Origin: Coemansia sp. RSA 487
Lineage: Eukaryota; Kickxellomycota; Kickxellomycetes; Kickxellales; Kickxellaceae
Assembly (NCBI GenBank): GCA_027577595.1
Contig: JANBRJ010000099.1
Location: forward strand, 1-59,548
Direction: 5' to 3'
DNA: 59,548 nucleotides
A program made the translations under genes and the position numbers. The notes under the pieces were generated by a model, which searched no databases, had not been told where the DNA came from, and saw only the letters and a list, made by a program, of their open reading frames with translations. This document shows positions 10,301 to 49,511 of this stretch, piece after piece (position 1 is the stretch's first letter; each line of letters opens with the position of its first letter).

Positions 10301-13251
10301 CTGCATCTGGGGGCCAGACATCCGGGAGAGTTTCATCTGAGACAGCAAATGACAAAAACACAACTGGCGCCAGCACAACAAGCCGTGAAAAGGCACCAGC
10401 TATTGATGTTTCCAACCGAGATGAAGCCCAGCAATCTGCTAGGCAGGCATCAAATGCAGCAGGCGATACTGCGACAGCTTTACGAACTCGAGATTCAGAG
10501 GCAAACACATCTGCATTAACAGCCGCTGCGACTGGCGGTGTATCAACTTTGTTGCAGAACACTGGTGGCCTTCCATTCAATATTGCTGATTCGCTGACCG
10601 AGTCAATGCCTCGTTTGGACGACTTGTTCCGGGGTACACAGCGTTTGCCTGGAGGATTTGGCTTACACGCATTGCTGTCGCGGTTCTTGCCGCAGATTGC
10701 GAGCGGAGCGCTTGGTGTAGCTCCAGGGTCTGAGCGTATGGCATACCCGCTTTCTCGCTGCATTCGCTGGCGTGTCGAGTATCACAGTAGTGAAGATGAT
10801 GTTGCTGGACGCCACCAGCAGAAACCGCAACAATCCCAGCAAGGCAGGACCAACCCAAACACCTCACACGAGTTGGGAAGTGTGTCTTATTCTCAAGCAG
10901 TCGCTGAAAATATGACCAGCACTCAAGAGGCGGTATTCCGCGAGCAAATGGAGGCATATCAGTACATGTACACCCGACTCTACGAGGTTTTGCAAAATGT
11001 ACAGCGCGACAACCATGTTGGACTACCGTCGTCTTTCCTCTTTGAGCACCTTTTGCGCAGAAAAGACAAGAACAGTAATGCTGCTACTCCCATGCACCAT
11101 CGCCAAACAGTCGGCCACGCTTTGCCTGCTCAACATACACAACAGGAAGTTGGTCCAGATTCGGAAAAGGATGACAGCTGTGAATTCGATTACGAAAGTG
11201 CAAGCGATAGTGATGAAATGGATGAGGATGGCAGACACAACCAGGGAGAGAAGGCATCGATGTCAGCATCAGCTTCCAGCATCAGTGGAACTGGGGCTTT
11301 GACAGAGCAGACACTAAGTGCCCTTCCTCCATTTCTACGCACCATTGTCGATCAGCTGCGTGTTCTAAGTGCAGGTGGCGGCGGCGGAGGGGGAGGACAG
11401 TTTGCAGCATTGCCATCTTTGGCTGATGGCAGTGGTACTTCAGGTCAGCCCCAGGACTCAAAGACCAGGCCGTATCCATTTGACAAGGCTGCCAACGCGC
11501 TGTTTATCTACACAGTTGAATCACTGGAACTGGCACAACGAGGTATACGGAATCCGCCAGTGTTTAACCATGAGGACTCACGCAAACGGCCATCGGGTAC
11601 AATTGCTGATGGAGTGAGCGAGGCTCATGCGCTGTTTTTGCATTCTTTAGGCAAGACGTCGGAGCTACAATATCGTACTGTGCTTGGGCCTCTGTTTGAC
11701 ATATCCAAGCCGCATGTTGAAAGCTCGGACCCCAGCATCCCTTCTGTTCCACCTGTGCAGCGGCTGCGTGCGCTGGTCGCAGAATCGCACGCGCCAACAA
11801 TTGCTGCTAGCACCCACGGCGATGTGCTTTCACGCACAAGACTCGACATGCTCAAGGATATAGGTTTTATGCTTGCCCCGCTTGGTGGACAGCATACCCC
11901 ACGCTTGCGCGAGATTGCAAGTGAGCAAGCACGGTGGCAGTCTGGCACCGATGCCGTACCACCAAAGCCGTTCCTTTTACGCAACATATTTTCCGATTTT
12001 GCGGAGCTGAGTATCTCGCTGGTTATGCCGTTGGGGCTTGATATATGGCATATCACGCGCCTTTGTATTGCGGCAGAGCTTCTCCGCATATGTGTTGCAG
12101 TTGGCGACAGCCTTCTTGGCGAGTACACTGGCGCGCCCAAGGCTTTGCGCATTGCCCAACATGTGCCAGTAGATGGCACCACCCATGCACACAGCACAAC
12201 GGCTGCTGGCAAGACCGCAAACGACATTCCGCAGCCATGGGTTGATGCGCCTGAAGTGCGAGATGCAAACCTCGTTTCGCAGTTGACCAAGGGTAGCGAT
12301 GCTTCATTTCTGGAGGCATCGGCAAAGAGCATCCAGTCGCTAGTGGTGTGGGCAATCAGCCGCTTGCAGGGGCCCGATAGGAACGAGGAAGCTATCAAAC
12401 GGCTCGAGTCAGCGGCGCATCCTATCACTGTCACAAAACTGGTTGCTGTCTTGCTTCTACCATTCCTGCGCAAGGTTGCGCTTGTATTCAACGTTCAGTA
12501 TGGCATTGATCTTGCGCGTGAAGCGCCCTGGCTCCAAGCAGACAGAGCCCGCGCTACAGCTGAAGGCAGCACGAACTCACAGGTTCTATCGCAGTCGGAG
12601 CCAGAGTGTGTCCGCCTTTTGCGCTTGCTCAACCTGCCAACGCTTCATCATATTTTTGTTCCCGAGTCGCAGCCGGCGATGGCCTCTCTGGCAGATGGCT
12701 GGCTGCGAGAGCTGCGTCTCTTCCGGCGACGCCATGGTTCGTCTTTATCGCTCGGTGCTGGGCACACGATGGCTGTTCCAGTCAACATGCCAACGCTGTT
12801 TTCTCTTGTTGAGCTTCCAGACCGCTTTGAGGATCTATTTGAGCGCTCGGCCAAGGCATTCTGCCCGCGCTGCAACGGTGTTCCGAGCGATCCAGCGCTG
12901 TGCTTGCTGTGTGGCACATTTATATGTGCCCAGAGTTTCTGCTGCGAGGAGGATGGTATAGGCGAGTGCAATATGCACATGAAGACATGCGGTGGGTCCG
13001 TTGGAATGTATCTTTTGGTAAAGAAGTGTGGCCTTCTTTTGCTGCATCACGACAACGGCTGCTTTATGTCTGCGCCGTACTTGGACCAGCATGGCGAGGT
13101 AGATCTGGGGCTGAAGCGTGGCCGGCCGCTGTTTATCAACAGAGTCCGATATGAAGAGATGAGAAAGCTTGTTCTCGCGCAAAAGATCCCAATCTACGTT
13201 GCACACAAAATCGACCAGGCCTTTGACATTGGCGGATGGGTGTCGCTCTAA
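4339..13251 (+). CDS. UBR1: UBR1-type N-recognin E3 ubiquitin ligase, two exons
   Basis: RING E3 ligase that recognises N-degrons and marks proteins for proteasomal breakdown. Exons 4339-4724 and 5430-13251 join in frame (TGC AA | G AAT TGC), giving about 2735 residues, long compared with about 1950 for yeast Ubr1. The splice restores the UBR box: CGHVF at residues 115-119, then the Cys/His series through CCDCGDPEAW near 165-174. A ClpS-like domain follows (about 272-340; LWNDEVHSF), for hydrophobic N-termini. An acidic tract (about 420-445) and disordered insertions account for part of the extra length. The RING-H2 runs from CIVCQEDC (about 1531) to LCPLCK (about 1690), with the long insertion typical of the family. 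The C-terminal Cys/His-rich autoinhibitory domain occupies about the last 130 residues, ending in GGWVSL. Convergent with ferrochelatase 75 bp downstream. Confidence 0.93.
4725..5429 (+). other. UBR1: 705 bp intron of UBR1
   Basis: GTAAGT donor at 4725 and TAG acceptor ending at 5429. The splice is phase 2 and cuts the UBR box between its zinc ligands, so the joined protein strongly supports it. The intron is four to five times longer than the other introns in this window (128-168 nt). It contains several open frames on both strands, but none with recognisable protein content, and no clear snoRNA boxes were seen. Confidence 0.88.
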
Positions 13252-13326: not shown

Positions 13327-14541
13327 TCATGATGTTCTTGGGGGCTTTGGTATTGACTGGAGGCGCGCCCGCTGCTCGATCTGTGACATGATCCATTTTC
13401 TTGTCAGCACAGTCTGCTCTGACTCTATTCCAGGGTCGGGAAGAAGAAGCTGTGGGCTAGTCGCAAACCCAGAATCTATATGCTCCTTTACGATGCTTGC
13501 CAGGGCATCAATAAACGGAGGATGGTCATTTAAAGCCTCGGCACGTAGATACTGTGCAATCCCAGCCTTTTCTGCAACCTCTCCATACTCGATGTCAAGC
13601 TCAAAAAGCGTCTCGATGTGATCAGATGTGAATGCAATGGGCACCATCACCAACGATTTGTAACCGATGTTGGCATATGCCTCAATTGCGGATTCAGTCT
13701 GCGGACCAAGCCACCTCAGAGGGCCAACTGCCGACTGCCACGTCAGGCGATACGGGTTATTGATTCCACGGCGGCGAAGCTCGTCAACAACATAGGCAAC
13801 CGTTCCGCCAACCTCGGAAACGTAGGGATCGCCTCGGTCGACGACATTAAGCGGCAAGGAATGGGCTGAAAAGATTATCGGCGTTGTCTGGCGAACACTC
13901 TCGGTGAGTCGCTTTACCTGGTCCTCCACGCGATCGGCAAAAGCACGAATCAGCTTTGGGTGGCTCCCCCAGCGATCTATGAAACTCCACTGCAGCCTAG
14001 ACTGGGGATCGAGTCGTTTTTGGGCTCGGTATAGCTCGTTGAGGTTGCTTCCGGTGGTGGAGCCCGAGTACTGTTGATACTGTGTGAACGCGATGACATG
14101 GTCGATTCCGTCCTGGAGCATTCTTTCCAATGCCCCAGAAATGCTTGGCTCGGTGTACCGGAACCCCACATAGTAGCTGTGCGGGCCGGTTTTAGGGCTA
14201 GTGCGGTTGAGAATGTCCACCATGCCTTCGCCTTGTGCACGCGTCCATTTTTCGATTGGAGAGCCGCCGCCAATCTGTCTGTACTGGTCCTTGACCTTGT
14301 TGACGCGGCGGTTGACGATAAACTGCCCAAGCAGGCGCTGTGCTGGAAGCTTGATTATGTCTCGGTCAAGGAATATGTTTTGGAGAAATGGCTTGACATC
14401 GTCCAAGGTGCGTGGCCCGCCCATGTTCATCATGAGTATTCCAAGCTTCGCTGGTGGTGCTGTGTGTGTGCTATATGCTCTGGCCAGTGGACAGAGTCCA
14501 CTAACAAATCTATTTCCGACACGCTGATAACATAGACTCAT
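13327..14541 (-). CDS. HEM15: Ferrochelatase, mitochondrial
   Basis: Inserts Fe2+ into protoporphyrin IX, the last step of haem synthesis, at the matrix side of the inner mitochondrial membrane. The start at 14541 gives 404 residues beginning MSLCYQRVGNRF, an Arg-rich presequence without acidic residues. The conserved domain starts at KLGILMMNMGGP. The active-site His is in FSAHSLPL and the conserved Glu in SDHIETLFELD. QYQQYSG and RLTWQSAVGP blocks are also typical. After the catalytic domain there are no cysteines, so the C-terminal [2Fe-2S] cluster known from animal and fission-yeast enzymes is absent, as in budding yeast. An upstream extension of the frame to 14649 lacks family similarity and was not used. 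It shares a 380 bp divergent promoter region with the M28B gene. Confidence 0.95.
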   Translation of the reverse strand: MSLCYQRVGNRFVSGLCPLARAYSTHTAPPAKLGILMMNMGGPRTLDDVKPFLQNIFLDRDIIKLPAQRLLGQFIVNRRVNKVKDQYRQIGGGSPIEKWTRAQGEGMVDILNRTSPKTGPHSYYVGFRYTEPSISGALERMLQDGIDHVIAFTQYQQYSGSTTGSNLNELYRAQKRLDPQSRLQWSFIDRWGSHPKLIRAFADRVEDQVKRLTESVRQTTPIIFSAHSLPLNVVDRGDPYVSEVGGTVAYVVDELRRRGINNPYRLTWQSAVGPLRWLGPQTESAIEAYANIGYKSLVMVPIAFTSDHIETLFELDIEYGEVAEKAGIAQYLRAEALNDHPPFIDALASIVKEHIDSGFATSPQLLLPDPGIESEQTVLTRKWIMSQIEQRARLQSIPKPPRTS

Positions 14542-14921
14542 GCTTCGCTGCTTACTTTCACCCTCTAGGGTATTTATAGACAACAAGAAATGCTTGCACA
14601 GCAGTATAAAACAAAAAAGCTGAACTTTGAATCCAAAGAATAATAACAAATTAAAAGACGAAGCCCAAAGAAGAAAAGATAAACAGACATCTTGATCTTT
14701 TCACAAATTTGGTTTTGGTCCTACACCATGTTTTTTGTACAAGAAAAAGAGGACTAGGGGTTTTGGCTTGAAACGTAAAACCCAGGCTCTCTGTTCCTTT
14801 TTCTTTCTCCTTGTATCTTTATTAATTCTCGGCTTCTCCAAAACCCCTGTATTTTTTATTTTTTATTACTTTACTCTTGTGTCTTTGGATGACTCTACAG
14901 CTATAACACCCTACTTTCATC
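14542..14921. promoter_or_regulatory. Divergent promoter region between ferrochelatase and M28B gene
   Basis: This 380 bp AT-rich spacer separates two divergent start codons. It is rich in A on the left and in T on the right, as expected for 5' leaders reading outward. No recognisable gene or defined transcription-factor site was found. Confidence 0.4.
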
Positions 14922-22974: not shown

Positions 22975-25116
22975 TCACTTGTTGACCTTTCCACGCCCCA
23001 TCCAATGAGGTTTTCTGCCGTCACCACTTCTGTCACCTCGCTCGCCACCAAAACTCCGGCGGTTGCCACCATGTCCTCGATCGCCACCGAAGCTCCGACG
23101 GTTGCCACCATATCCTCGATCGCCACCGTATCCTCGATCGCCACCAAAGCTTCTCGATGAGCCACCAGTGCGCATTCCAGAGTCCCGTCTCTCCATTTTC
23201 CGCTCTTCCGCTCTCACTGCGTCTTGCAAAAAACGTGGCAGCATCGGCTCTGGGATGTTGAACGGCGTAAGAATTGCTCGCGAGCATTCTATTATCCTCT
23301 TTAGACCAGGATTCCCGATCATAGCGCGCTTGGCGTCGTAGAAGGCAACAAGGGAATTGGATGCATTACACATATTATTCTCGTCAACAAACTCCTTGAA
23401 GCGCTCCCACTTGCCTGCAAGATTCTTGATGGCACCAGCTTCAAAGTTGGCAATGGAGTTTACGTATTCAGATGTATACATCTCGTTTTTGACCAGCGAC
23501 TGTGTTACATCGTTCTTAAGGAAAGGCATTTCAAGATTTGCCAAGATAATCACGCCTTCTCCGCCCTTTCCAGCACGCCCAGTACGTCCCAAGCGGTGAA
23601 TATATGCCTCGGGCTCTGAGGGGATTCCGACTTGAATCACCAACGAAATGTCCGGGTAGTCAACGCCACGAGCAGACACATCGGTGGTAAGGAGAACCGT
23701 TGTTTTGTTAACTGTTGTAGGGAAGTTGCGGAATGAATCCGATATGCGTGTGCGCGCTCTCTGCTCAATCTTACCATGAAGGCAAGAGATGTCCACCACT
23801 TCTTCAGATTGGCGGTTCATTGAATCAGAGCCAAATCCACGGCCACCACGCCTGTCGAACCGCTGCCCGCGTCCGTTCCCATATCCGTACCTGTTACTGT
23901 TCCTGCTATCGGGTATGCGACTTCCTTTTCTCATTAGCGTATTAAGGGCTTCGGCATAGAGCGTTGTACTCTTGACAGTAGGGAGGAACACAACGATCTT
24001 GCTGCCTTGGTTATTAGCTGTGTTCTTGTCGATATGAGACTGAATGAGATCACACAGTACAGGGAAGTGGTGCATAGGCTCTGCATGGATATACTCCTGC
24101 TTGATATGTGCGTGCGTGTTGGTATCGTTCTTGTCAACACAGTCAATCAGATCAAATCCACGGTTGAATGTTGTACGCGCAAGCGATTTGACCTTTGAGT
24201 TAATGGTTGCCGACACAAGGAATGTCTGGCGCTCAGACGAGATTCTCGACGATATCTCGTTAATCTCGGTGGTGAAGCCCATATCCAAAAGCATGTCGGC
24301 CTCGTCAAGCACCAATACCTTTGTCCGAGAGGCAATGTCGGAAAATTCGGGATTGTTGGATAAAAAGTCAATGAGGCGGCCAGGAGTTCCAATAACAATG
24401 TCTGAACGCTCTCTGCTCAGCATCTGCGACTGGAACCTGGAGCTCTCGCCACCAACCAACAGCTGCACACCCCACTTGTGGAACTGGACAAGCTTCTTTG
24501 CCTCGGCCGCAATCTGGTGCGCAAGCTCGCGAGTAGGGCTGACAATCAAACACCCGATCGAACGGCCTTTGCGTTTAAGCTCGGGATCTGCCTTCTGAGC
24601 CTTTAGAATCGAGCTGATTGCCGATACAAGGAAAGCGACGGTCTTTCCCGTCCCAGTCTTAGCCTTAATGATAATGTCTTTCTCTATAGGCATGCGTGAA
24701 ATTATCTGGTCCTGAACCTTGCTAGCCACTTTGAACCCCATACCGACAGTCAGTGCTTTCATGGTCGTGCTGTCGATAGAACTGTATGACTTGAAGGGGA
24801 CGGGCACATAGCTATCAGCAGAAATATTTTGATCCTCTGTCTTTTCGATGCTGATCGAGCGGACATCCTCTGCATCCTGGTCTCCGTCGTCGCGCCTGCT
24901 GGCAAGAGCCTCGCTAGACATGAGGCGAACAGACTGCAAAGCTATTGGCGATCCAAACATGCTGATAGCTAACGCACGGCTGATGTTGCAAACAGCTGGC
25001 TGCCATCCACGGACTGGAACCTTGCTGTTGGCTGAGATCGTTGCTGCTGCTAGCACTGGCATGCGAGCCAGCGGATGAGCTGCAAGCCGCATTTGCGACG
25101 CAAGAAAGCGCTGCAT
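22975..25116 (-). CDS. Mitochondrial DEAD-box RNA helicase, MSS116-like
   Basis: ATP-dependent RNA helicase of 713 residues, probably acting in mitochondrial intron splicing, translation or RNA turnover. The chosen start gives MQRFLASQMRLAAHPLARMPVL, a basic presequence; an earlier in-frame extension to 25224 has no such character. Helicase motifs are all present in order: Q-motif region (MGFKVASKVQDQII), I (AKTGTGKT), Ia (PTRELAHQ), II (VLDEADMLLD), III (VSATI), V (TDVSARGVDYP) and VI (HRLGRTGRAGKGG). A C-terminal extension follows the RecA2 domain, then a Gly/Arg/Tyr tail of GDRGYGG-type repeats (last ~60 residues), as in Mss116 RNA-binding tails. Motifs and presequence make the family certain, the exact orthologue less so. 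Confidence 0.88.
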   Translation of the reverse strand: MQRFLASQMRLAAHPLARMPVLAAATISANSKVPVRGWQPAVCNISRALAISMFGSPIALQSVRLMSSEALASRRDDGDQDAEDVRSISIEKTEDQNISADSYVPVPFKSYSSIDSTTMKALTVGMGFKVASKVQDQIISRMPIEKDIIIKAKTGTGKTVAFLVSAISSILKAQKADPELKRKGRSIGCLIVSPTRELAHQIAAEAKKLVQFHKWGVQLLVGGESSRFQSQMLSRERSDIVIGTPGRLIDFLSNNPEFSDIASRTKVLVLDEADMLLDMGFTTEINEISSRISSERQTFLVSATINSKVKSLARTTFNRGFDLIDCVDKNDTNTHAHIKQEYIHAEPMHHFPVLCDLIQSHIDKNTANNQGSKIVVFLPTVKSTTLYAEALNTLMRKGSRIPDSRNSNRYGYGNGRGQRFDRRGGRGFGSDSMNRQSEEVVDISCLHGKIEQRARTRISDSFRNFPTTVNKTTVLLTTDVSARGVDYPDISLVIQVGIPSEPEAYIHRLGRTGRAGKGGEGVIILANLEMPFLKNDVTQSLVKNEMYTSEYVNSIANFEAGAIKNLAGKWERFKEFVDENNMCNASNSLVAFYDAKRAMIGNPGLKRIIECSRAILTPFNIPEPMLPRFLQDAVRAEERKMERRDSGMRTGGSSRSFGGDRGYGGDRGYGGNRRSFGGDRGHGGNRRSFGGERGDRSGDGRKPHWMGRGKVNK
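23040..23155 (-). repeat. Minisatellite encoding the RGG-type tail of the helicase
   Basis: On the plus strand the phrase TCCTCGATCGCCACC recurs at least three times, with intervening CGACGGTTGCCACCAT blocks. Read on the coding strand it gives GGDRGYGG and GGNRRSFGG-type repeats. The repeats keep the reading frame. Confidence 0.75.
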
Positions 25117-26075
25117 GTTGCCACTTGAGAAAGGGTTAGAGCAGAAATAAGCTTGCGCTTGCTTAATTTGTTTGCAAGAAAATATGCAAACAGCAAAAAA
25201 AAAGTCCTTTTTATAACCCTCCAAGAGCCTCTAAAATAAATATAACTAGCGTGATATGGCAATAATATAAAAACCTAGGGAATGAATATCTTTTTCAAAG
25301 AGAAAAAGGCTTGAGCATTAGTTTTTTTGATCAGAATGTCCATATCAAAAAATCCTTCCAGCCTTTTTTTACCTTTGTTGCTGTTTCATTCAAGTAACGG
25401 CTTGTGCAAAAGCAAAGAAAATTTTCCTCCCCAGTTTTTATAGCCAAGACCATCGTTTATTTGCTGACAGCATGTTCCTTCCTTGATTACTGTCAGTATA
25501 TATTAATCAAATCCTGACAAGGTGGAATTTAATTATATCGGATCATAATCAAATAATTAAAAGGAGCAAAGAGACACAAGTGACGTGAGAAAAAGAGGGC
25601 TTTTGTGCTGGCTAGAGCTTTCGTTTCACGCTTTTTTCTCTAGCGTGTTTTTAAGGGTTAGAGCAGAGTTGTCTTTTTCTGTATCACAAAAATACAAATA
25701 GCTCTCTTCGAGTACTTTCTTCTTCTCGCATCTGCTGTGCATTTCATCGTCTCTGCATTCCCATCGAGTCTATACCTCCCTTCCTTCCTCCCAGCAGTTA
25801 GCTCGCTATTTGTGCATTTCTACTTTAGAGAGGCCCAGGTAATTCTGTTTCTTAATTCTGCGCAGGCTCTTTCCTCGAGTATCTGCCAAGTGTGCAATTC
25901 AACTAAACGCACACAATCTTCCCCATTTGAGCGGCGTGATTCGCTTGCCTTATTACTATATTTATTATTGTCTTGCGTACTCTCCTTTTGAATATCGATT
26001 TTCGTCTTCATATCACAAACTGGAAAACCCCCCACACTCTCTGGCGATATAAGCATAAGGGCAACAGCTACTGAA
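25117..26075. promoter_or_regulatory. Divergent upstream region between helicase and INTS2
   Basis: About 960 bp without a convincing gene. It is AT-rich on the left and turns CT-rich close to the INTS2 start (about 25740-26010), which suggests a leader for the plus-strand gene. Short open frames were seen but have no recognisable content. Confidence 0.4.
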
Positions 26076-29000
26076 ATGCAAAACACCCCGCAGAAGCCAG
26101 ACGCTGCTGATGCTGCTATTGCTGAGATTGATACAGCACCATCAGAGCAGAAGAGAGCAGCTAACCAACAGACTGTCTCGGCTGAAAATGGTAGAATGTT
26201 TGCTGCTACAAGTCACAATGCTGACGACAAGTGGGGCTGTGATGATGATATAGAGGATGAAGTCATTGGTGGTGGGTGTGTAAACGCTGCCGTTGCTGGC
26301 GCCAGTGAAAGGGGAGCAACAGGTACCAATGATAGTATTAATGACAATAGCAGTGGCCAAGGGCACAGTACTGGTAGTATTCATCGTGCCGAACACAACG
26401 GCACCTTGTCTGCTGATAGTTATGCTGCTTCTGCGAGTGGTGAACTCGTGGAAGATATTCAAACTCCAATATCAACAGCGGCGCTGATACCGCCATTGCT
26501 AAAAGATCCTACTGCTATTGGTGATGCTTTTCTAGCAGCCAGTGGCACTAGATCAATTTCCCTTTTAGATTCCAGTTTGGCAGCTGATCACAGGCCTGAG
26601 TTGGACGATGGCCGGCCTGTTACCCAGCCTGAGGATTATGACCACGTCGCTCACGGAGCATATAGTCACTGGCGATCGCGCTTAAAACAGCCCTCCGAAG
26701 CACTTGAACAGGTAATGTATCCTTTATAGACTATATTTACTCGCTATTTCTAGTATTTATAACTATGCTAACTGTGTTTGTGTCCAAAACCTATTTTTTT
26801 TTTACATTTTACTACCTCCCATGCTATTTCAACAGCATAGTCTGTGACCGATATCCGAGATTTTATACTTGGCTCCTCTCGACGGCGGCTTCAGTTGGTC
26901 CTTATTCAGCTTTATGACCTGATAGAAAAAACGCCCAGAATCTATGAACTGCTGGAATACAAACAAAACATAGAATCATCCAACTCAACCCAGGCCTGGC
27001 TAGAACGCAAGCTCAATTCCATATGGGCAGAGCTTAAAACTAAATGCTCACTTTTGATTTTGGACAAGGAGTCTACGGCCTGGAGCACCCTTGATCAGGT
27101 TGTTATTCCTGAAACGGACATGTGCAGAGATAAGGTGCTTTTTGTCCAGTCTCTTGTTTTGTCGACAATCCAAAAAGTGGTTGAAAACTGCTCCGTTTTG
27201 TGGGACTGCTTTGACGATTCAGTCCGTGGACTTGTACTTGTGAATTCTGGCGAAGATATTATACGCTCAATGTTCCTAGCAACAGATAACAGCCATGGCC
27301 TCCGCAGAGGGCTTTTGCGTTCGCTTTTAAGGTCATTCTCAGTACTTCCTGATTTGTACAAAGCCGTGATAAGGGGTACTGTCAAAGCCGCAGCGGCAAC
27401 TAGCACTAGTAGTTTCCGGCTTGTGGTTTCCGAGCTCCAAATGTATCGAGTTTTGCCTGGCGTTCTTTTTGGAGCGATTGCAAGCTATGCGCGTACAACA
27501 CTCAGCGTCGACGAGACCATTCAGCAACTGGACAGCATTTTTGGCGCATGCAACTCTTCTTTGTGGATTGGAACTCCTGCTGGTCGAACACGGTCAAAAT
27601 ATGCCCAGTCTGGCACTGAGCTATACGGAATTGTCTGCTCCTATTTCTTTGCGCAAAGCGCCGACGATGATAAGCAAAGGCAAGCTCTTCAGTTTATGCG
27701 TGTCGTTTCTGGTCTAATTGGACATCTACGGCTTGATGTGAAAGAAACATTCCTAGATGCTTTCAAGCGCACAGAACGCTTTGTGCTTGATTCCAACACC
27801 GCCGATATGTCTGCCTCTTTGCTTTTGGTCCTGGTTGGCTTTGGCAGCCAAGTAACTGCACACGGCATTTTAAATGCTATTTCTGGAGTTGAGAATCATC
27901 TTGTTGCGGCTAGAATCGATAGCATTATTGCCCATCTCCTGACCGACCACATAAAGCCTGTTGTCGAATTCGTCAACAGTGTCTTGGGTATGGATTTTGT
28001 GTACCCGCGTGAACGTCTATTCTATTTCAAGGACATTGTCACACAATCCAAATCGGCGTATTTTTCTGGTGCGGCTATCGCCAGGAGACTTCTTTCTAGG
28101 GATTACTACAAGCCAAGTGACAGCTTGTGCTGCTCGCAGTTTCAAAGGGCAGCAATCCTATACTTTCTTCAGGCTGAGATTTTTCAAGAAAATGGCATTG
28201 ATGTGCGTGAATGGTTCTCTGCGCTGATCTGGAATATGGATGCCGCCACCGCGAACGAGTTTGGTGTTGCTATCAAGGCCTACGTTTCAGCAGTCTTTAG
28301 TTCGTCTGCAATAACGCCGATCCCTGAGACTGCTATATGGAAAGCATTCTCTCCAGAGGCTGTATTCAATATTTCTTCTGTCGATTCGGTATCACCGGCC
28401 CAAGTACTCTACCTTCTGTACTTACTGTATTATTGCGAGAACCTGTCTGATCAATCCAAAGGGCCTGGTAGCCAATTTTTGACTCTTGGAAAGCGGCCAC
28501 TGATAGGACATGCTTCTACTGCTAGTAGCCAGCCTCGTGCAAGCACGCTTGGTGCATCTTTAGGAATTTCTATCAACCACTCGACTAACAACTTCAGTTC
28601 TCAAAGCCCGCATACGGCCAGCACTGGGGGGTCTAGCCCGCCAATCGGTATGTTTGGCGCCGTCAGACGCGGCGAATACTCGGATCAGCTGCTCGATTCG
28701 CTTCCCGTCTCATGGATCCTTCGATGTGTCAACCGAAGCCCAGAATACCAGCTTCTATGGCCAGAGCTTTTATCAATGGCTACTGCACAATTTCCGGATC
28801 AGCTCGATGTGGTTGCTGTTCTACAGCACGAGCTGTCTGCAGATTCGGTACAACAATCCACACCATACATGTCATCTGATTCTGAACCACGCATTGAGGC
28901 ATTTTCGGAGATGATAAGCGATGCCCGTAGCCTTGCCAGATGTGCGATTACTGATATATCTAACACGTGTGTGCGCAACACGCAGCTATTTCCGCTCTTG

Positions 29001-30722
29001 TCTACGATTGAGCAGTACTTTAAGTACCCAGCAGCTGTGCGCATGGAAACGTGCAGCGCATTTTCGGGATACCTTTGCCGTGTTGCGCTGCAAAACCATG
29101 CGAATGATGAGATTGTGGCAAGCATATGCCAGGCTTGGTTTTCGCTTCATGAACTGAATCCTCATATTGTTTCTACCGCGACAGCAAATTCCTGGAGGAC
29201 TAAAGAAGAGACCACCAAACCAAAGCTTATCCCGCAAGACGTATGGCTAGACCCACTTGTGCTTTTTCGCAGCGATTCGCGCATTTTTGAGTCGCCTGGT
29301 CTAACTGATATACTGCTTACGGTGCTTGCAGAGTTTCTTGTTCTTTCTCGGACTTCCATACGGCGAATTCACTCTCTCCGACAGAGGGATAATTCCGCCC
29401 TTAAAATGTCACATGTTGTGGCTATGGTTCAGCTGCAGGAGTCAAGCGCATTGCAAATCCTTATTGAGTTAGCCAGCTTTTCACAGAACGATGCTGTACG
29501 GGCGCTTATATTTGAGTTCATCCATGCTCGATTTCTTGAACAACGCGTTGTTCAGAAACTTGTTCACTTCCAGGCATACGAACTTACCGCCATCGACGAC
29601 ATGGTCAAGCACGTGCCGTCAATGCATGCCTGTTCCGAGTTTATTCCCGAAATGCTTATGCAGTCTCTTCCGCGCCTTCAGCTTTTTTCGATAAGGCTTG
29701 CTGCGTCGATAACGTCAAACTATCCGATTGTTGCGAACGAAGGAATGACGAAAGAGGTCATCCTGCCGCATATACAAACAACTCTAACGCAGGTTTCTGG
29801 CACTGTAGCAGAAGAGCAGCTAGCTATTTCAAACGCGATGTTTGAAGCTGTGATCCGCATTAACAATGTGTTCCCATTAATCCGTCAAGATTGCATGCGT
29901 CTAGTCAATGCGGTACGTACTGCGGCGATTGAGAAAGCTCAGACAGCACTTCAGGATAATCAGCAGCAGCATGGGTTAATTCAAAATATTGCGAAATGGG
30001 TTGGCTCTTGCGACAAGGTCTTGGAGATTATTGGCAGTGAAAACCCAGAGGCTGCCAGGCCTCAATACACACAGATCGAAGACATCAGCGCAGACGAGTT
30101 TGTGTCAGTGGTCGAATCGACTGTCAAGCTGCGGGAAAAGAGCAAACACGTTGGCCACAAACCAACCCTAGCCACCAACTCAATCGATCTGGGAGGTTCC
30201 CAGCAGCCAGGAGCGATGACATCACAAACACCGGGGATGTTGCCAACTCCCTCTCCGAACCAAGCAATGCCACAACCTCATGGTGCTGGTTCTGCTACTC
30301 TAGGCAACGCGAAAAGATCGCATAGCGCAGCGATGAGTAGCGATGCTGACCACTCCTCAAGAATGGTGCCGTTGTCTACTGGGAAACGCGAAACTGGAGG
30401 TTCTGTCGAGTTCGGCCGTGGTCGCAGCACTTTTGTCAACCCAGGCGCTTCGCGTGGATCACCTGCTGCAGGACCATTGTCCGATTTGGCTGGACACGGC
30501 AATGCAGCAGCGATGTATACTCATTCTCTGCCTGCTTCTTCTGCACAAATGTCTGTAAGCAGTGGTCCTGGGACTTCTGCTGGGTTCAAAAAGCGCAGTC
30601 GCCACAGAAGCCGTCCTCCACCTGGAGGCAAAGAAATTAATGGCACCAAAACACCAGCCATTGGCATAAAGCGTGCCAAAGTGCCTGGTGGTGAGAGACA
30701 GCAGCGAAGCAAGGACCCTTGA
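26076..30722 (+). CDS. INTS2: Integrator complex subunit 2, two exons
   Basis: Scaffold subunit of Integrator, the nuclear complex that in animals cleaves snRNA 3' ends and ends promoter-proximal transcription by RNA polymerase II. Exon 1 (26076-26711) and exon 2 (26841-30722) join in phase 0 (GAACAG|GTAATG...CATAG|TCTGTG), giving 1505 residues (human INTS2 1204). Matches recalled from human INTS2 occur in the right order: RRRLQLVLIQLYDL (about residue 226; human RRLRLVLSELL), LLDSLPVSWILR (about 829; LMDQIPIKFLIR), DVWLDPLVLFRSDSRIF (about 1012; DLMIDPLIVLRCDQRVH), and KLVHFQAY...PSMHACSEFIPEML (about 1118; KLVHFQGY...PSMHICLDFIPELI). Predicted all-helical. The first ~200 and last ~190 residues are low-complexity additions; the tail ends with a basic KKRSRHRSR-like putative nuclear signal. 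Convergent with SLA2. Confidence 0.9.
26712..26840 (+). other. INTS2: 129 nt intron of INTS2
   Basis: GTAATG donor at 26712; acceptor CATAG ending at 26840. The nearer CAACAG acceptor a few bases earlier would shift the frame, so CATAG is required. Exon 2 has no ATG ahead of the conserved region, which supports the join. Confidence 0.75.
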
Positions 30723-30852: not shown

Positions 30853-33800
30853 TTAGATAGTGCCTTCTTCTTCGTTTGCGTGGTATCCGTGGCGACGCAT
30901 CTCTGCAAGGTGTCTTCTGGCACTCACAAGGTCCTTTTCCAGCTTCAGTATCTGAACCTGCTGTTCCATTTCCTTGCTCTTAAACTCAAGGTTGCTCATC
31001 TTGTCATAATCCTCTGTTTGGCGGCTCTCTTCTTCTTTTTCGGTAAGCTTCTGAGTTGCGCGTACAAGATGGGCGGACGCTTCGGTGACTGCCTTTGCAG
31101 CAAGCTCAAGCCGTTCCTGGGTCCTGGAATGCAGCTTCGACTTGACTCTAGATGCAGAGACGATCAAAACCGTAGCAGCAGATACTTCTCGTGCCGCAAC
31201 AACAAGGTGCTCGAAGGAACGGGTGCCCTTGATGACGCCGTCTGCCGTTTCTACAAGATTGTTTGTGGCTACAGCAACAGCCTTAGCAGCGGAAATAAGT
31301 CCTTCAGTCCAGCGGTTATGCTTCTTATAATAGGCGGTTGTAGAGCTGGTTCCGCGGCCTTCGGCAACAATTTCCAGCTGCGATGCAGTAGCTGCTCGGA
31401 TAAGCTGCGCAATGGCATTGGTCATAGCCATCGACGAGTCCAGGATCGCATCGTGCACCTGGACCTGATGATCGCTAAGCGACGAGTCGTGCGGCTGGTT
31501 TGCAAGCGCCTGTAGACGCGCAACAGCATCGTCAATGGCACGGGCAGCATTCAACATCTCGCGCTCAACAAGGTCCGAAACATCCTCGCTTGTGGTTGCC
31601 ACTGAAACCTTCGTGTTATCCTTTGGAATAAGACCCTCTGTCAATGCTGTCAGCGTGCCCAAGCTTTGCTGCAGCTCGCGGTTGGTATCTAAGATCACAC
31701 CTGCACGTTCAGACGAAGGAAGCTTTTCCATGGCGCCCGACTGGCCCTTGATAAAGAATTGGCGACCAAAAAGAGCTGTTTGGCGGCCGGCTTTGATAAT
31801 CCTTTCGATGGAATCTTCATCGTTAGCCAGACGCGAAATGCCCTTGAGGTTTGCTAGCAGATGATCCAGCCCATTTGCAAGGCCAACTGCTGTCGATATG
31901 ATCTGTGTCTGGTCGCCGTCAGGATCAGCCAAGTAGTGGGCAAATGAAGCAGCAATTGAGTTTCCAGAATCATGGACCTGCTCGATTGTGGCTAGAACAT
32001 GCTCGGCAGTAGCAGACGCATTTCCTGGGTAGCTTGGGTCATTGAGATTAAACACCGCCTCATCTGTCTTGTCTGCACATGATCGCAAGATAGAGTCCAA
32101 AATGCGCTTGAGCTTTTGTGCGTGCTCGAGAAGCACCCTGTCCAGCTGGCGCTGCAGATCGCCCTGGTTATCGCCAACTTGTTTCTTCATGCCTGCCATG
32201 GCCATTATGCTGTGGTCCATACCCGCTTGCAAAACCGAAATCTCATCGTCCTTGGCCTGCTTCATACGCTCGTGCTCACTGCGCAAGTCATCGCACTGCC
32301 TGCGCATACGGTCCGCCTCTGATGTTCTTGAATCGAGCAAGCGTTGGATATCCTCCTTTTCGCCAGTTAGCTTTCGGAGTATGTCTTTGACCTCCGAGTC
32401 CTTGTCGCGGAGCAGCTCGCGCACGCGATCCTCGCTGTCTTCAAGCTCGCCACGCAGACGATCGACTTCGTCCTGCTGCCTATTCTCCATGCGCTGCAGA
32501 TCTGCAAGAGCCTTGTCACGCTCGCGCATCATATCAGCCAACTCAAGGTTCTTGCGGCGCATCTCGCCTTCAAGCCTATCCATCTTGGCCATGACCTCAG
32601 CAGCGCTATTTGCCTTCAAGCTTACGTCCTTGAACTTTGTCAACAAGTCAAGATGCTCCTGGCGTAGCTGAGCATAAAGCTTGGCCAAAGCATCGTACTT
32701 TTGCCTCCATTGCTCTATTTGCGCTTGCAGTTGGCGAATCAGCTCGTCCTTGTTCGCATCTTGCTGCTGCTGCAGCTGCTGCAGTTGGCGAATCTGCTCC
32801 TCTAGTGCAGCAACACGCCTGTTGTATTGGTCGATCGACATCTGGTCGCGCTCGTGTTGGCCACGCATCAGAAGAAGCTGCTGCTCCATCTCTTGCATCT
32901 TTCCTTGAACCTGCCGCTGGAGCTGCTCACGCTGGAGCTGTGCAAGTTGCTCCTGCTCCCTTTGCTTCTGTAGTTTCTGTTGTTCGTCATACAGACGCTG
33001 CTGCTCCTCTTGTTTACGTTGCTGTTCAAGACGCTGCTGCTCCATTTGCTGCTGAATAACGATTTGCCTTTGGCGCGCTTCCTCCTCCTGCTTACGGCGT
33101 TGCTCTATTTGCTGCTGGATCTGGGCCTGACGCTGGCGCTCCTCTTCATCCTGTCTCTTTTGCAGCTCCTCAGCGGCCCTACGTTCGGCTTCAATATCAA
33201 TCCTAGGAGAGGAATGTGATTTCCTATCTGGCAGCACTGATGTTGAGCGATTTCCGTCAGCCCCAGATCCGTCTCTGTCTATGACAGGAGAAGAAACATG
33301 GTCGCCGCCCATGAGATTGATCGGATGCTGGGGGAGCTTGGGCACCGAGATAAGGCTTGTCAGGTAGCGAAGGTTGGAGCACTCGAAGTAGAATTTGCGC
33401 AGCATGTAATGCTGGCCATTATAGCGCTTACGCAAGGGCTCAAGGGCTGTTTCAGCACCCTCAACGCGCTTGTGCATGGCTATCAGCATATGCGTCGCAA
33501 ACTTGTATATCCCGTAGCTCTCTTCAACGAGGGGCACAAGCGAAGCAATTCGACACTCGTTATTGGAGGTTCGTGTAAAATGGCGAAAGACGAGCTTTTG
33601 GAATTCGTCAAGACGGTCCTGTAGACTCATAAGATCAGCAATTGTCTCATAGCCCTCATTAGGGTCGTTTGTCCCACGCAGACTGACATACTCTTTGTAA
33701 TCAAACATTCCATTAAACTCGGGGTGAAGGCGATGATACTCGAGCTTTGCGAGAAGAAAGTTCACATAGCCGCGGATAAGCTGGCTATAGTTTCTCCAAC

Positions 33801-34284
33801 CGCCATAAGAGCCGCCGCCAAGACAGTTGCCAAGCTCTTCGAGGAATTTCGTTTGGCCAAGAGCCTCCTGGATTGTGATGTTATGGCCCTCACGAATAAG
33901 CTTGTGAATAGTAATGAGCGCCTTGTAGCATTGCACCTCGTCACTCTTTAGAGGCTGGGACTTTAAGCAGTCCCAAACGGGCATGGATGTCTTATAGTCC
34001 CATGTAAAAACGATACAATCTACAAAGCAAATATGGCAAAAAAGAAAGTAAAAACAACACAACAGTCTTGTTAGTGCTAGTAGGTCAAATTGTTCGGCAG
34101 CGGATGGAAACTAAAACTCTAGATTGCAAGCCTTGCATCTGTGTACCAGCCGACAAGATGCAAACTGCCATTCAGGAAAATGCATACTTCTCACATGTTT
34201 GCGCTTTGGTGCAGTTTCGTCGGTGCTAGTGCCCTTGCGAACAGAAGTAATGAGCTCTTGTTCAGCCTTTATGCGGTCGCCCAT
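30853..34284 (-). CDS. SLA2: SLA2/HIP1R endocytic actin adaptor, two exons
   Basis: Links clathrin-coated pits and PI(4,5)P2 membranes to actin during endocytosis. Exon 1 (34188-34284) encodes MGDRIKAEQEL...ETAPKRKHVR; exon 2 (30853-34019) continues with NCIVFTWDYKTS. The phase-1 join (A | AT TGT) restores the ANTH domain with its lysine-rich PIP2 site (KRKH). The protein is 1087 residues (HIP1R 1068, Sla2 968). After the ANTH domain (about 1-270) come a Gln-rich linker and coiled coil (about 310-690), then the actin-binding talin-like I/LWEQ domain (about 840-1050) and a closing LEKDLVSARRHLAEMRRHGYH helix typical of the family. An upstream in-frame ATG at 34311 would add nine residues. Intron 168 nt. 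Confidence 0.94.
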
Positions 34285-35375
34285 GCGGAGCGAAAACTGA
34301 GCATGGTTCATTGCGAGTATGACTTTACGTTCGTTTGCTCCGATCTCGTAGATGGTGTGAAATTTAGGAGCAGAAAGCACAAAATCAATATAGCAGCAAG
34401 AAAGACACTTGAGTATATGTTAGAAAAAAGTATATTGGTTGCAAATTTGACAAAGAAAAAGAAAAAGAGAAAAGCGGAGATGAGAAAGACGTTTGCCAAG
34501 AGTGAGCATGACCTACTGCCAATTTTTTTTTATCTTGTGTGTAAAGAAAAATACAACGAACACTTTAAAAATCAATCAGGTGTCAAAAATAGAAAAAAAA
34601 ACGTGACTAACGACAGAGCACGGTTTTACTTTTATCTGCTGCCCTTCAAGATCACTTGTATCCACTAGAGATAAACGGAAGCTCTTTATATTGACACGCT
34701 CCTTTATATATTGCCTGTGGTTTCCGCCTCTGTGCGGGCGGCAGGTATGTCATATATAATATTTCAGTAACCACAAATAACCCTCGCGAAGGGCACCAAT
34801 GAGATGATCAAATCAAATAGTTTGTACCTTTTATCACGATGGAAGATCATGTCCTCGCAAAAAAAGTACAGAAAGCATAACAAAATATCGGGAGTCCAGA
34901 TATGAGGTGCAATATTAGTGATAGCAAACAATGTCTCTGGATCTGTTACCTCTGCTGTTGCCGCTGCTACATCTTGGAAAGACATACCCTTCTTTCCTGG
35001 GTCGTGAACATCCAATGCCAAAACACAGCAATGTCTGCATCGCTCGTGTACAATGCACCTGTGAGTAGGTATACTGCATCAAGCAGCCTGGGGTGAAATG
35101 TAAGTTTTGTTGCAGTAGCTATCAGTACATATTCTGTACATACGTCCAAAAATGGGCACGGTGCACAGCCAATTGTATGAAACCTGTGTAGTGATTGCAA
35201 CCAGAGAATTGGATATGTCGATCTCGTGAGGTTCAAACAAAAGTTGATGGCGGCTACAGTGATGAGCCAGTGCTTTTATTTGTCTTATAATTTACTTTCC
35301 TTTTTCCTTCGCAAATGACAAAAAGCTCCAGAATGAATGAATGCATAGTGAATAGTGCAATGTGGCTGGATGGCG

Positions 35376-46302: not shown

Positions 46303-48981
46303 TTATTCTGCCATTTCCTGATCATCCTCGTTCTTGGCGTCGACCTGAAAAACAAAATCTTCATCAATACCATCCATATGGGTGATATGAACTATACTGT
46401 GTGATGGCAATGCTCCTTGGATGATTTCCTTGGATAGTGAAGTGACAAGGTGCTTCTCCAAAAAGCGCTTAATTGGGCGCGCGCCGTAGAGCGGGTCATA
46501 GCTCTCCTTAATAACATGGTCAACCGCAGCGTTGTCCATAACAAGAGCAATGTCTTGATCTTCAAGACGGTTAGCAATTTGTTTCAGCTGCAAGCTCACA
46601 ACGTCATGCAGACTGCTATATCCAAGACGGTTAAATACGACAATATCATCGAGCCGGTTAAGCAGCTCTGGGCGCAGGGTGCGCTTGAGATCATCCATGA
46701 CGCTTCTGCGTACCGACTCTGGAAGCTCACTCGAGCCATCCATCAAATCAGGATTGCTTTCTGAGGTGAATTGCAGGATTTTTTCTTGTCCAATGTTTGA
46801 GGTAAGGATGATGACACACTGAGTAAAGTCAACCACTCGTCCTTGTCCATCCGTCAGTCGCCCATCGTCGAGCATCTGAAGCAAAATGTTAAGAACGTTT
46901 GGGTGCGCCTTCTCGATTTCGTCGAAAAGAATCACTGAATAAGGACGCTTACGCACCACTTCAGTGAGCTGGCCGCCCTCCTCGTATCCGATATAGCCAG
47001 GTGCTGCGCCAATCATCCGTGACACGGAATGCTGTTCCATATACTCGGACATATCGAGGCGGACCATATAGCGCTCGTTATCAAAAAGCTCACGAGCAAG
47101 GACCTTGGCCAGCTCAGTCTTGCCTGTACCTGTCGGTCCAAGGAAAAGGAACGAGCCAGTTGGCTGGTTTTTGCGCGACATTCCCGCACGTGACCTCAGA
47201 ATGGCATCCGACACAGCATCGATTGCCCGGTCCTGACCAACGACTGATTTCTTCAAGCGCTCTGCGAGTGACATTAGCCTCTCGACTTGAGACTGTGTTA
47301 GTCTCTGTACCGGAATTCCTGTCCAACGTGCAACAACCTCGGCAACCTGGTCGGGACCAACCACTGAGCTCAGCATCCCTTGCTCGATTTCGCCACTAGC
47401 AACCATCTCTTCGTGTTTGACCTGCCGCTTCTTGAGCTCGTTGATATTCTGCTGCAGCTCAGGAATGGCATAAAAATTGAGGTCTGCTGCCTTTTCCAGG
47501 TCCTGAAGGCGGGTTGCTTCTTCGGCTTTTTGGCGCAGACTCTCCATCTTTTGGTTCGCTTCGCGTATCTGATCAAGCAGCCCCTTCTCTTGCTCATAGC
47601 GAAGCTTCAACGGGTTGAGCTCATCTTTAAGCTGCGATATCTCCTGTCCGACCGCTTCAAGACGCATCTTTGAGGCATCGTCCTTTTCTTTTTGCAAGGC
47701 CGTACGCTCAATCTCGAGCTGAAGTATTTTACGTTCCAAGTGATCGATTTGTTCAGGCTGCGAGTCTAGCTGCACTCTTGTCCATGCCATTGCCTCGTCG
47801 ACAATATCGAGTGCCTTGTCTGGAAGCCTGCGGTTTGTGATGTATCTGTCTGATAGTTGCGCGGCAGTAACAAGCGCTGCATCCAAGACCTTGACGCCAT
47901 GGTGGATTTCGTAGCGCTCCTTCAGACCACGCAATATCGAGATTGTGTCCTGGACAGAGGGCTCACTAACGTTGATTTTCTGAAAGCGCCGCTCAAAGGC
48001 AGCATCCTTTTCGACGTACTTTTGGTATTCATCGTCCGTAGTAGCGCCAATAACACGGATCTCTCCACGAGCGAGCATTGGCTTGAGAAGGTTTGCCGCG
48101 TCCATTGCTCCACTCGATTGCCCAGCACCCAGTACTAGATGTATCTCGTCTATGAACAAAATTGCACCGTCTTCGCACTCGGTAACCTCCTTGAGCACAC
48201 TCTTCAGCCGCTCCTCAAACTCACCACGGTACGTGGCACCAGCAACCAGTGCACCCATGTCGAGTGAAAACAAGTTGGTATGCAGCGTTTGTGGCACATC
48301 GTTAGCAACAATGCGTTGTGCGAGTCCCTCGACAATAGCCGTCTTCCCTGTTCCTGGTGGACCTGCAAGTATAGGATTGGACTTGTTCCGACGGCACAGA
48401 ACACGAATGACCTGGCGGATCTCCTCGTCGCGACCAATAATCGGATCGATTTTTCCCTTTTCTACTTGCTTTATCATGTCAATGGCGTATTTGCTAAGCG
48501 CGTCAAAGGTTGACTCGGCCTTCTTTGAATTGACCTTCTTTGTCCCGCGAATCTTTCTGATGGTCTCGCGGAGATCTTTGCTCTGGATTCCTCCCTTGCT
48601 AAGGATATCCACAACCGATGTTTCGTAAGACATGGCAATCAGAAATGTATCGACAGCAATAAGAGAGTCACCCATAGACTTCATTTCCTTCTTTGCCTTG
48701 GTAAAGACCTCATACATGCTTCTGCTCATGCCTGGTTGTGGAGGCGCTGGCTCTTGTGCAGGGAGCTTGACTACGGCGCGCTGCATAGCGCGCTCGAACT
48801 CTACTGGCTGCGCGCCATGTCTATCGACGATCCGCTTAAGATAGCCGTCATCTTGGCCCCACAGCGCGAGTAGTATATGTGCTGGATATACCTCGGTATT
48901 GTTATTCTCAATGGCCATATCCATGCCACCCTTGATAGCCTCAAGGAGTTTCTCCGTGTACTCTTCTGGGTTGAACGACAT
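46303..48981 (-). CDS. HSP104: Hsp104/ClpB disaggregase
   Basis: Hexameric AAA+ chaperone that pulls proteins out of aggregates with Hsp70. The protein is 892 residues (yeast 908), starting MSFNPEEYTEKLLEAIKGG. An N-terminal Clp repeat domain is followed by NBD1 (Walker A GPPGTGKT near 205; Walker B LFIDEIHL; pore loop ATYRGEFEERLK), a coiled-coil middle domain (about 400-530), NBD2 (GPTGTGKTELAKVLA near 610; ILFDEIEKAHP; pore loop PGYIGYEEGG) and a C-terminal small domain ending in an acidic DDQEMAE tail. No ClpP-binding loop is expected or seen. The frame runs slightly upstream without an ATG. It shares a 530 bp divergent promoter with the RhoGAP gene, which contains heat-shock-element-like repeats. 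Confidence 0.96.
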   Translation of the reverse strand: MSFNPEEYTEKLLEAIKGGMDMAIENNNTEVYPAHILLALWGQDDGYLKRIVDRHGAQPVEFERAMQRAVVKLPAQEPAPPQPGMSRSMYEVFTKAKKEMKSMGDSLIAVDTFLIAMSYETSVVDILSKGGIQSKDLRETIRKIRGTKKVNSKKAESTFDALSKYAIDMIKQVEKGKIDPIIGRDEEIRQVIRVLCRRNKSNPILAGPPGTGKTAIVEGLAQRIVANDVPQTLHTNLFSLDMGALVAGATYRGEFEERLKSVLKEVTECEDGAILFIDEIHLVLGAGQSSGAMDAANLLKPMLARGEIRVIGATTDDEYQKYVEKDAAFERRFQKINVSEPSVQDTISILRGLKERYEIHHGVKVLDAALVTAAQLSDRYITNRRLPDKALDIVDEAMAWTRVQLDSQPEQIDHLERKILQLEIERTALQKEKDDASKMRLEAVGQEISQLKDELNPLKLRYEQEKGLLDQIREANQKMESLRQKAEEATRLQDLEKAADLNFYAIPELQQNINELKKRQVKHEEMVASGEIEQGMLSSVVGPDQVAEVVARWTGIPVQRLTQSQVERLMSLAERLKKSVVGQDRAIDAVSDAILRSRAGMSRKNQPTGSFLFLGPTGTGKTELAKVLARELFDNERYMVRLDMSEYMEQHSVSRMIGAAPGYIGYEEGGQLTEVVRKRPYSVILFDEIEKAHPNVLNILLQMLDDGRLTDGQGRVVDFTQCVIILTSNIGQEKILQFTSESNPDLMDGSSELPESVRRSVMDDLKRTLRPELLNRLDDIVVFNRLGYSSLHDVVSLQLKQIANRLEDQDIALVMDNAAVDHVIKESYDPLYGARPIKRFLEKHLVTSLSKEIIQGALPSHSIVHITHMDGIDEDFVFQVDAKNEDDQEMAE

Positions 48982-49511
48982 TTTTAATACTATGGCACGC
49001 AAGTTCTAGTCGATGTTGCTAAGGAAAGTTTACGAAAAATGAAACAGAATTGATTAGAAGAAATGAAAGAGAGAAAGGGTTTGCTCTCCTTTTGTAGTTT
49101 TGCTTTGCTACAGAGAGCTAGTACATTTGAAAAAAAACGGATCAGGGCACAAGATTGAAGCTGTATGATGTCACACACCACAAATATTTGGAACAGCGAA
49201 GCATAGTCTGGAATCTTCCAAAGACATGCACAGGGTTTTCTTGAGAAATTTGAAGCTCAAAAAGATAACAGCACTGATGACGTATCTTTAAAAAATGCGT
49301 GGGGAATAATATATCACCTCATTTTCTGATCTCGTGATCCTGTGCCTGAGCGCATTTCTAAAGCAAACTGATGGCATTTTTGCCTTTCCGTTTTGTTGTT
49401 TTTCGTTGAAAAAGTTGTAGTCTACTCCACCTAATCTCTATTTTGCAACCATCTACCATCACAAATTTGACCTTCCGTATAAACTGACATTAACGCCTTT
49501 ATCATTTAATA
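48982..49511. promoter_or_regulatory. Divergent promoter region of HSP104 and RhoGAP gene
   Basis: 530 bp without coding content. It holds clustered GAA/TTC repeats at 49190-49256 (listed separately), about 210-275 bp upstream of the HSP104 start. The RhoGAP side becomes CT-rich from about 49380. Confidence 0.45.
49190..49256 (-). promoter_or_regulatory. Heat-shock-element-like GAA/TTC cluster
   Basis: GGAATCTTCC at 49210-49219 is a head-to-head nGAAnnTTCn pair. It is preceded by GGAACAGCGAA near 49191-49201 and followed by TTCTTGAGAAATTTGAAGC near 49238-49256, which keeps an imperfect five-base spacing. This is the pattern recognised by trimeric Hsf1, and HSP104 is a classic target. Inference from motif only. 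Confidence 0.45.

What the first reader, a model, noticed from the sequence alone, without database searches (positions are those of the whole stretch)
26076..30722. Integrator subunit 2 encoded in a fungal genome
The gene shows at least four blocks, in order, that match human INTS2 as I recall it, across about 900 residues. Its neighbours (SLA2, MSS116-like, trehalose phosphorylase, DUO1 and HSP104 in the same window) are fungal. Integrator is generally described as absent from yeasts and most fungi. If real, this lineage kept an Integrator, or at least its scaffold subunit, implying ancestral presence in fungi and later loss. The low-complexity extensions at both ends are not part of the animal protein and may be lineage-specific contacts.
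Basis: partly seen in the sequence, partly recalled or inferred. Interest (0 to 1): 0.82.

Follow-up and report, generated by a model that had tools for sequence, protein, structure and literature searches.

The report
Fungal gene for Integrator subunit 2
A fungal chromosome piece carries an intact-looking gene for INTS2, a scaffold part of the Integrator machine that ends short RNA transcripts in animals and has been described as missing from yeast or limited to animals; this suggests that some fungi still have it.

Summary
The gene is real and is INTS2. The large exon (26841-30722, +) matches one Pfam family out of 24,736, PF14750 INTS2, at E 1.5e-52, 178.9 bits against a cut-off of 25. Among all PDB sequences human INTS2 is the only significant match (E 2e-14; next 0.55). 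About 414 residues match strongly. About 175 residues before them match weakly but in order. The first 300 residues of the large exon and both ends do not match. The contig looks fungal: SLA2, DUO1, HSP104-like, ARC1-like and trehalose phosphorylase-like genes, no gaps. Best reading: an INTS2 ortholog inherited by a non-Dikarya fungus and still a scaffold of an Integrator complex. The complex itself is untested, because no genome is held. Papers seen in passages call Integrator metazoan-restricted or absent from yeast. Ten capped searches of open-access papers listed no report of it in fungi. A 2023 paper shows that hundreds of ancestral gene families persisted in non-Dikarya fungi, so retention is unexpected but not revolutionary.

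The parts
26076..26711 (+). Exon 1 of the INTS2 gene (212 aa): low-complexity Ala/Ser/Asp/Gly-rich N-terminal extension
   Evidence: Open frame from ATG; joins in phase to exon 2; no Pfam match; 77% of residues from AGSTPQNEDKR; codon usage does not resemble the neighbours (r -0.006)
26712..26840 (+). Predicted intron, 129 nt, GT..AG, with a branch-site-like CTAAC; acceptor CATAG lies 5 nt after another AG (CAACAG)
   Evidence: Read from the sequence. The in-frame TAG at 26838-26840 excludes the upstream AG for this frame. No transcript data
26841..27740 (+). N-terminal part of the large exon, 300 aa, no detectable relative by sequence
   Evidence: No Pfam family
27741..28487 (+). Middle part, weak colinear match to INTS2 profile positions 435-619
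   Evidence: E 0.0056, 14.8 bits, under the cut-off of 25, when scanned alone
28488..28664 (+). Ser/Gly-rich insert between the two matching parts
   Evidence: 77% AGSTPQNEDKR and lowest entropy of seven segments (3.54) in residues 762-821
28665..29936 (+). C-terminal INTS2 core, profile positions 631-1041
   Evidence: E 3.2e-50, 171.2 bits; the only other family listed is Dicer_dimer at E 0.077, 13.5 bits, under its cut-off. Human INTS2 E 2.1e-15, next PDB match 0.19; two stretches 24% and 27% identical to human
29616..29651 (+). Motif PSMHxCxxFIPE shared with human INTS2
   Evidence: Aligned to human residues 1033-1044, by counting in the alignment; degenerate DNA pattern hits the window once, 0 of 100 shuffles
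29937..30722 (+). C-terminal extension, becoming low-complexity Ser/Gly/Ala/Pro-rich, with a basic run KKRSRHRSR near the end
   Evidence: No Pfam family; 82% AGSTPQNEDKR over residues 1341-1505. The basic run is read from the translation; a simple pattern for two basic clusters found none
22975..25224 (-). Neighbour: DEAD-box helicase (MSS116-like)
   Evidence: PF00270 E 3.5e-39, PF00271 E 6.1e-21; the name MSS116 is recalled
30853..34062 (-). Neighbour: SLA2 (ANTH + I/LWEQ)
   Evidence: PF07651 E 2e-59, PF01608 E 6.4e-52; best PDB match SLA2 310.9 bits, Huntingtin-interacting protein 12 120.7 and HIP1R 76.9 bits
45273..46004 (-). Neighbour: DASH complex subunit DUO1
   Evidence: PF08651 E 5.1e-17
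46303..49002 (-). Neighbour: HSP104/ClpB protein
   Evidence: PDB bits: ClpB1 (9ip0) 960.0, Calcarisporiella thermophila Hsp104 931.3, Heat shock protein Hsp104 (6azy) 926.2, Putative heat shock protein (5d4w) 855.1, ClpB (6dju) 825.4, chains called Heat shock protein 104 at most 794.1

Best explanation
This is an ortholog of Integrator complex subunit 2 encoded in the nuclear genome of a non-Dikarya (early-diverging) fungus. It was inherited vertically from an opisthokont or earlier ancestor and later lost on the way to Dikarya. It most likely still does what INTS2 does in animals: it is an alpha-helical scaffold that pairs with INTS1 and INTS7 in the backbone of Integrator, helps to bind the RNA polymerase II tail together with INTS4 and INTS7, and, with INTS5, INTS6 and INTS8, holds PP2A in place. 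INTS11 would then cleave nascent short transcripts such as snRNA precursors. Shown here: the INTS2 identity of the C-terminal core, an intact long reading frame, and fungal-type neighbours on an ungapped contig. Inferred: orthology over the full length, the early-diverging position, vertical inheritance, the presence of the other subunits, and the function.
For: Only Pfam family matched by exon 2, E 1.5e-52. Core slice alone E 3.2e-50, with a weaker colinear match before it. Human INTS2 is the sole significant PDB match. Intact 1505-aa frame with one GT..AG intron. Codon usage of exon 2 correlates with 13 pooled neighbour genes (r 0.634; each of those 13 against the other 12 gives 0.476-0.898, and 12 of the 13 exceed 0.634), whereas five other frames of the exon give 0.196-0.351 against a pool of eight neighbours. 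Fungal-type neighbours and no N in 59,548 bases. Roles of INTS2 in the backbone, in RNAPII CTD binding and towards INTS6/PP2A: PMC9006982, section 7 part 1 read, and PMC11062913, passages. Persistence of many ancestral families in non-Dikarya fungi: PMC10406608, section 7 read.
Against: No other Integrator subunit was found in the window, and none could be sought elsewhere. The N-terminal half has little or no detectable INTS2 sequence signal. Structure models made without an alignment were unusable (mean pLDDT 38.7 and 37.7). Codon usage of exon 2 is at the low end of the neighbours, and that of exon 1 does not resemble them (r -0.006). No expression data. No second fungal sequence to show constraint.
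Confidence: 0.72

Rival explanations
1. The gene is a true INTS2 descendant, but the Integrator nuclease is gone, and INTS2 survives as a scaffold for something else, for example PP2A recruitment to RNA polymerase II.
For: Only the C-terminal core is well conserved, and the first 300 residues of the large exon are beyond sequence detection. No other subunit is among the 22 of 38 ORFs scanned in the window.
Against: A 59.5-kb window would rarely hold two subunits by chance (inference). Long helical scaffolds often diverge unevenly, also in working complexes (general knowledge).
Confidence: 0.15
2. The gene came by horizontal transfer from an animal, for example an arthropod host of a gut fungus.
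For: Early-diverging fungi include arthropod symbionts (PMC10386755, passages). Only one INTS2 relative, human, was available for comparison. Codon usage of exon 2 is at the low end of the neighbours.
Against: Only 24-27% identity to human in the two best stretches, codon usage still within the range of the neighbours, and long extensions that find no relative; a recent transfer would look closer. An old transfer is not excluded.
Confidence: 0.05
3. The contig is not fungal, or is a chimera.
For: Ferrochelatase and UBR1 in the window score higher against entries I recall as human (383.0 and 371.9 bits) than against those I recall as yeast (297.8 and 177.9). The best HSP104 match is a ClpB1 that I recall as a plant chain, and a ClpB chain at 825.4 bits exceeds those called Heat shock protein 104 (at most 794.1). 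The trehalose enzyme's best PDB matches are TreT and a trehalose phosphorylase/synthase, none that I know as fungal. Near-complete Dam1 complexes are reported from lineages outside fungi (PMC9998035, passages).
Against: SLA2 beside the gene is far closer to SLA2 chains than to HIP1R (310.9 against 76.9 bits). DUO1, an HSP104-type protein close to Calcarisporiella Hsp104, and an ARC1-like gene together are a fungal set (the judgement is general knowledge). No gaps. Yeast proteins evolve fast (general knowledge), which would explain the human-like scores.
Confidence: 0.05
4. The match is a chance resemblance among helical-repeat proteins.
For: Helical repeats can cross-match. The core slice also lists Dicer_dimer, at E 0.077 and under its cut-off.
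Against: E 1.5e-52 with no second Pfam family for the exon. Sole significant PDB match. A specific motif is shared.
Confidence: 0.01

Closest known systems
Integrator complex subunit 2, human (PDB 7cun_B), Pfam PF14750
   Same: Colinear match over profile positions 435-1041, the first part weak; shared LVHFQxY and PSMHxCxxFIPE motifs
   Different: About 25% identity in the best stretches; N-terminal part not recognisable; low-complexity stretches at both ends and a Ser-rich insert; 1505 aa against 1204 in the human chain
Ancestral gene families kept in non-Dikarya fungi and lost in Dikarya (PMC10406608)
   Same: Same pattern of delayed loss; the paper reports 540 homologous groups, and gamma-secretase as a complex thought absent from fungi (section 7 read)
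   Different: The main text does not contain the word Integrator; its supplements were not open to me, so INTS2 may be listed there

Membership tests
INTS2 (PF14750) | Score above the curated family cut-off | tested here: met
   178.9 bits against 25
INTS2 (PF14750) | No better match to another family or solved protein | tested here: met
   One family of 24,736 for exon 2; human INTS2 first and the only PDB match below E 0.1
INTS2 (PF14750) | Similarity over the full length of the family | tested here: inconclusive
   Profile 631-1041 firm, 435-619 weak, 1-434 not detected
INTS2 (PF14750) | All-helical scaffold fold like human INTS2 | tested here: inconclusive
   Two models without alignment, mean pLDDT 38.7 and 37.7; helices and no strands, but not trustworthy; no fold search made for that reason
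INTS2 (PF14750) | Reciprocal best match in the human proteome | not testable with these tools
   No human proteome held; PDB and Pfam used in its place
[quoted passage not shown]
   No genome is held for the window
Integrator complex | Association with RNA polymerase II and PP2A | not testable with these tools
   Needs experiments
Fungal nuclear contig | Neighbouring genes of fungal type | tested here: met
   SLA2, DUO1, HSP104 type near Calcarisporiella, Arc1p-like; contrary scores for ferrochelatase and UBR1 are given; no tree was built

The most novel reading that the evidence does not exclude
An early-diverging fungus has a complete, working Integrator with INTS11 nuclease and PP2A modules, so Integrator is at least as old as the fungus-animal ancestor, fungi lost it in steps, and the yeast snRNA termination route is a replacement.
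Probability: 0.6. Interest if true: 0.6.

Novelty: new member of a known kind. Interest (0 to 1): 0.43.

Why it matters
A review describes Integrator as restricted to metazoans (PMC9006982, passage), and a research paper as absent from yeast (PMC7347597, passage), so the usual yeast models cannot serve to study it. A fungal INTS2, if inherited vertically, dates the scaffold to before the split of fungi and animals and offers a possible simple fungal system. It also makes a testable question of how Dikarya replaced Integrator for snRNA 3' ends and early termination. My own recollection, from no call, is that plants and some protists also have Integrator subunits, and that databases may already hold INTS2 entries from early-diverging fungi, which lowers the surprise.

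Tried and rejected
Own-genome search for the family: no genome is held. Relatives in viral contigs by protein (6 pattern matches, none confirmed) and by a degenerate motif (none), and in prokaryote genomes by protein core (16 pattern matches, none confirmed) and motif (none). These scans use short peptide patterns, so they show no close relative there, not that none exists; they gave no alignment to improve the models. Structure prediction of the core and of a 1032-aa stretch without an alignment gave useless confidence, so no fold search was made. No RNA family at gathering score and no tRNA in the window. Rejected: another helical-repeat family. The repeats around the gene are six two-copy families of 20-28 nt that look like chance. 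Ten literature searches (four of the listings were capped: 25 of 108, 12 of 1,312, 30 of 68 and 15 of 146; one search found none) listed no paper that, from its title or abstract start, reports Integrator in fungi. Six papers holding Integrator and fungi or fungal were opened by passages, and none of the passages shown reports it. A paper on the Fanconi complex in early-diverging fungi has no occurrence of Integrator, and the INTS4/9/11 structure paper none of fung-. Other listed papers were not opened, and most subscription journals are not held.

Full report
What is there. On the + strand at 26076-30722 lies a gene of two predicted exons. The large ORF follows an in-frame stop at 26838-26840. 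Exon 1 (26076-26711) joins in phase to exon 2 (26841-30722) across a 129-nt GT..AG intron with a CTAAC branch-like site, giving 1505 residues without an internal stop. The acceptor used is the second of two close AGs, because the first would leave the in-frame TAG; this detail and the start codon need transcript data.

Is it INTS2? Exon 2 matches one Pfam family of 24,736, PF14750 INTS2, at E 1.5e-52 and 178.9 bits, cut-off 25. Cut into pieces, the stretch 28665-29936 alone gives E 3.2e-50 over profile positions 631-1041 of 1050; the only other family listed for it is Dicer_dimer at E 0.077, under its cut-off. The piece before it (27741-28487) gives E 0.0056 over positions 435-619, in the right order but under the cut-off. 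The pieces 26841-27740 and 29937-30719 give nothing. Against all PDB sequences the only significant match is human INTS2 (E 2e-14, next 0.55; core alone 2.1e-15, next 0.19). The half 26841-28487 alone finds no INTS2 there even at E 10. In two printed stretches the proteins share 38 of 139 and 24 of 99 aligned residues. A motif pattern for PSMHxCxxFIPE occurs once in the window and in 0 of 100 shuffles.

Is the gene sound and native? The codon usage of exon 2 correlates at r 0.634 with 13 pooled neighbour genes. Each of those 13 against the other 12 gives 0.476-0.898, so exon 2 is inside the range but near its low end: 12 of 13 score higher. Two shifted frames and three reverse frames of the exon give 0.196-0.351 against a pool of eight neighbours. 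Exon 1 does not correlate (-0.006), as might be expected of a 212-aa low-complexity stretch, so its coding status rests on the open frame and the splice phase. The window has no N.

Is it fungal? Of the 38 ORFs of at least 150 aa, 22 were scanned with Pfam. The set includes SLA2, a DEAD helicase that I take for MSS116-like, DUO1, an HSP104/ClpB protein, an Arc1p-like protein, a UBR1-type ligase with UBR box and ClpS domain, ferrochelatase, 5-oxoprolinase and a trehalose synthase/phosphorylase-type enzyme. SLA2 is much closer to SLA2 chains than to HIP1R (310.9 against 76.9 bits). The HSP104 protein scores 931.3 bits with Calcarisporiella thermophila Hsp104, 855.1 with a putative heat shock protein (5d4w), 825.4 with ClpB (6dju) and at most 794.1 with chains called Heat shock protein 104; its best match, at 960.0, is a ClpB1 that I recall as a plant chain. 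Also against a simple picture, ferrochelatase (383.0 against 297.8 bits) and UBR1 (371.9 against 177.9) score higher with entries I recall as human than with those I recall as yeast; these outputs name no organism. Fast evolution of yeast proteins and an early-branching fungus would explain this. It does not suggest an animal contig, since animals lack DUO1 (general knowledge) and HSP100 (PMC12283024, abstract start seen). The long uninterrupted frames suggest an intron-poor fungus, perhaps of Kickxellomycotina; that is a guess from memory, and no tree was built.

How it most likely works. In animals INTS1, INTS2 and INTS7 form the backbone that carries the nuclease module at one end and PP2A at the other; INTS6 contacts INTS2; and a composite interface of INTS4, INTS2 and INTS7 binds the polymerase tail (PMC9006982, section 7 part 1 read). 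INTS2, INTS5, INTS6 and INTS8 bind and position PP2A (PMC11062913, passage). Conservation of the C-terminal core suggests that at least part of this role is kept. Whether a nuclease module exists in this fungus could not be tested.

History. PMC10406608 (section 7 read) reports 540 homologous groups present in the Holomycota ancestor and absent from Dikarya, lost stepwise. An INTS2 kept in a non-Dikarya fungus fits that pattern. The main text does not name Integrator, and the supplements could not be read. [quoted passage not shown] Ten searches of open-access papers, several with capped listings, showed no report of a fungal Integrator; this is weak evidence that none exists.

Verdict. A genuine INTS2 in what is most likely a fungus: a known family in an unexpected lineage. 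It is interesting for dating Integrator and as a possible fungal model, but it is one gene, and a complete Integrator is not shown.

Noticed in passing
52795-55932 (+): A 1045-aa Ser/Pro-rich ORF with no Pfam family at E 0.01 and no PDB relative at E 0.01; function unknown, probably largely disordered.
   Followed up: partly
2658-3575 (-): DDE_3 transposase-like ORF (E 6.6e-16 over part of the domain) near the left end of the window, where GC is lower (0.42-0.45).
   Followed up: no
5416-13251 (+): A single 2611-aa ORF for a UBR1-type ligase that keeps UBR box, ClpS and PRT6_C domains and scores higher against UBR2 and UBR1 chains I recall as human than against the one I recall as yeast.
   Followed up: partly
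13327-14649 (-): Ferrochelatase scores higher against entries I recall as human (383.0 bits) than against those I recall as yeast (297.8 bits).
   Followed up: partly
46303-49002 (-): The HSP104/ClpB protein has its best PDB match in a ClpB1 chain (960.0 bits), ahead of Calcarisporiella Hsp104 (931.3), and scores higher with a ClpB chain (6dju, 825.4) than with chains called Heat shock protein 104 (at most 794.1).
   Followed up: partly
34141-34668 (+) and 4333-5019 (-): ORFs of 175 and 228 aa without a Pfam family; may be spurious or small lineage-specific genes.
   Followed up: no
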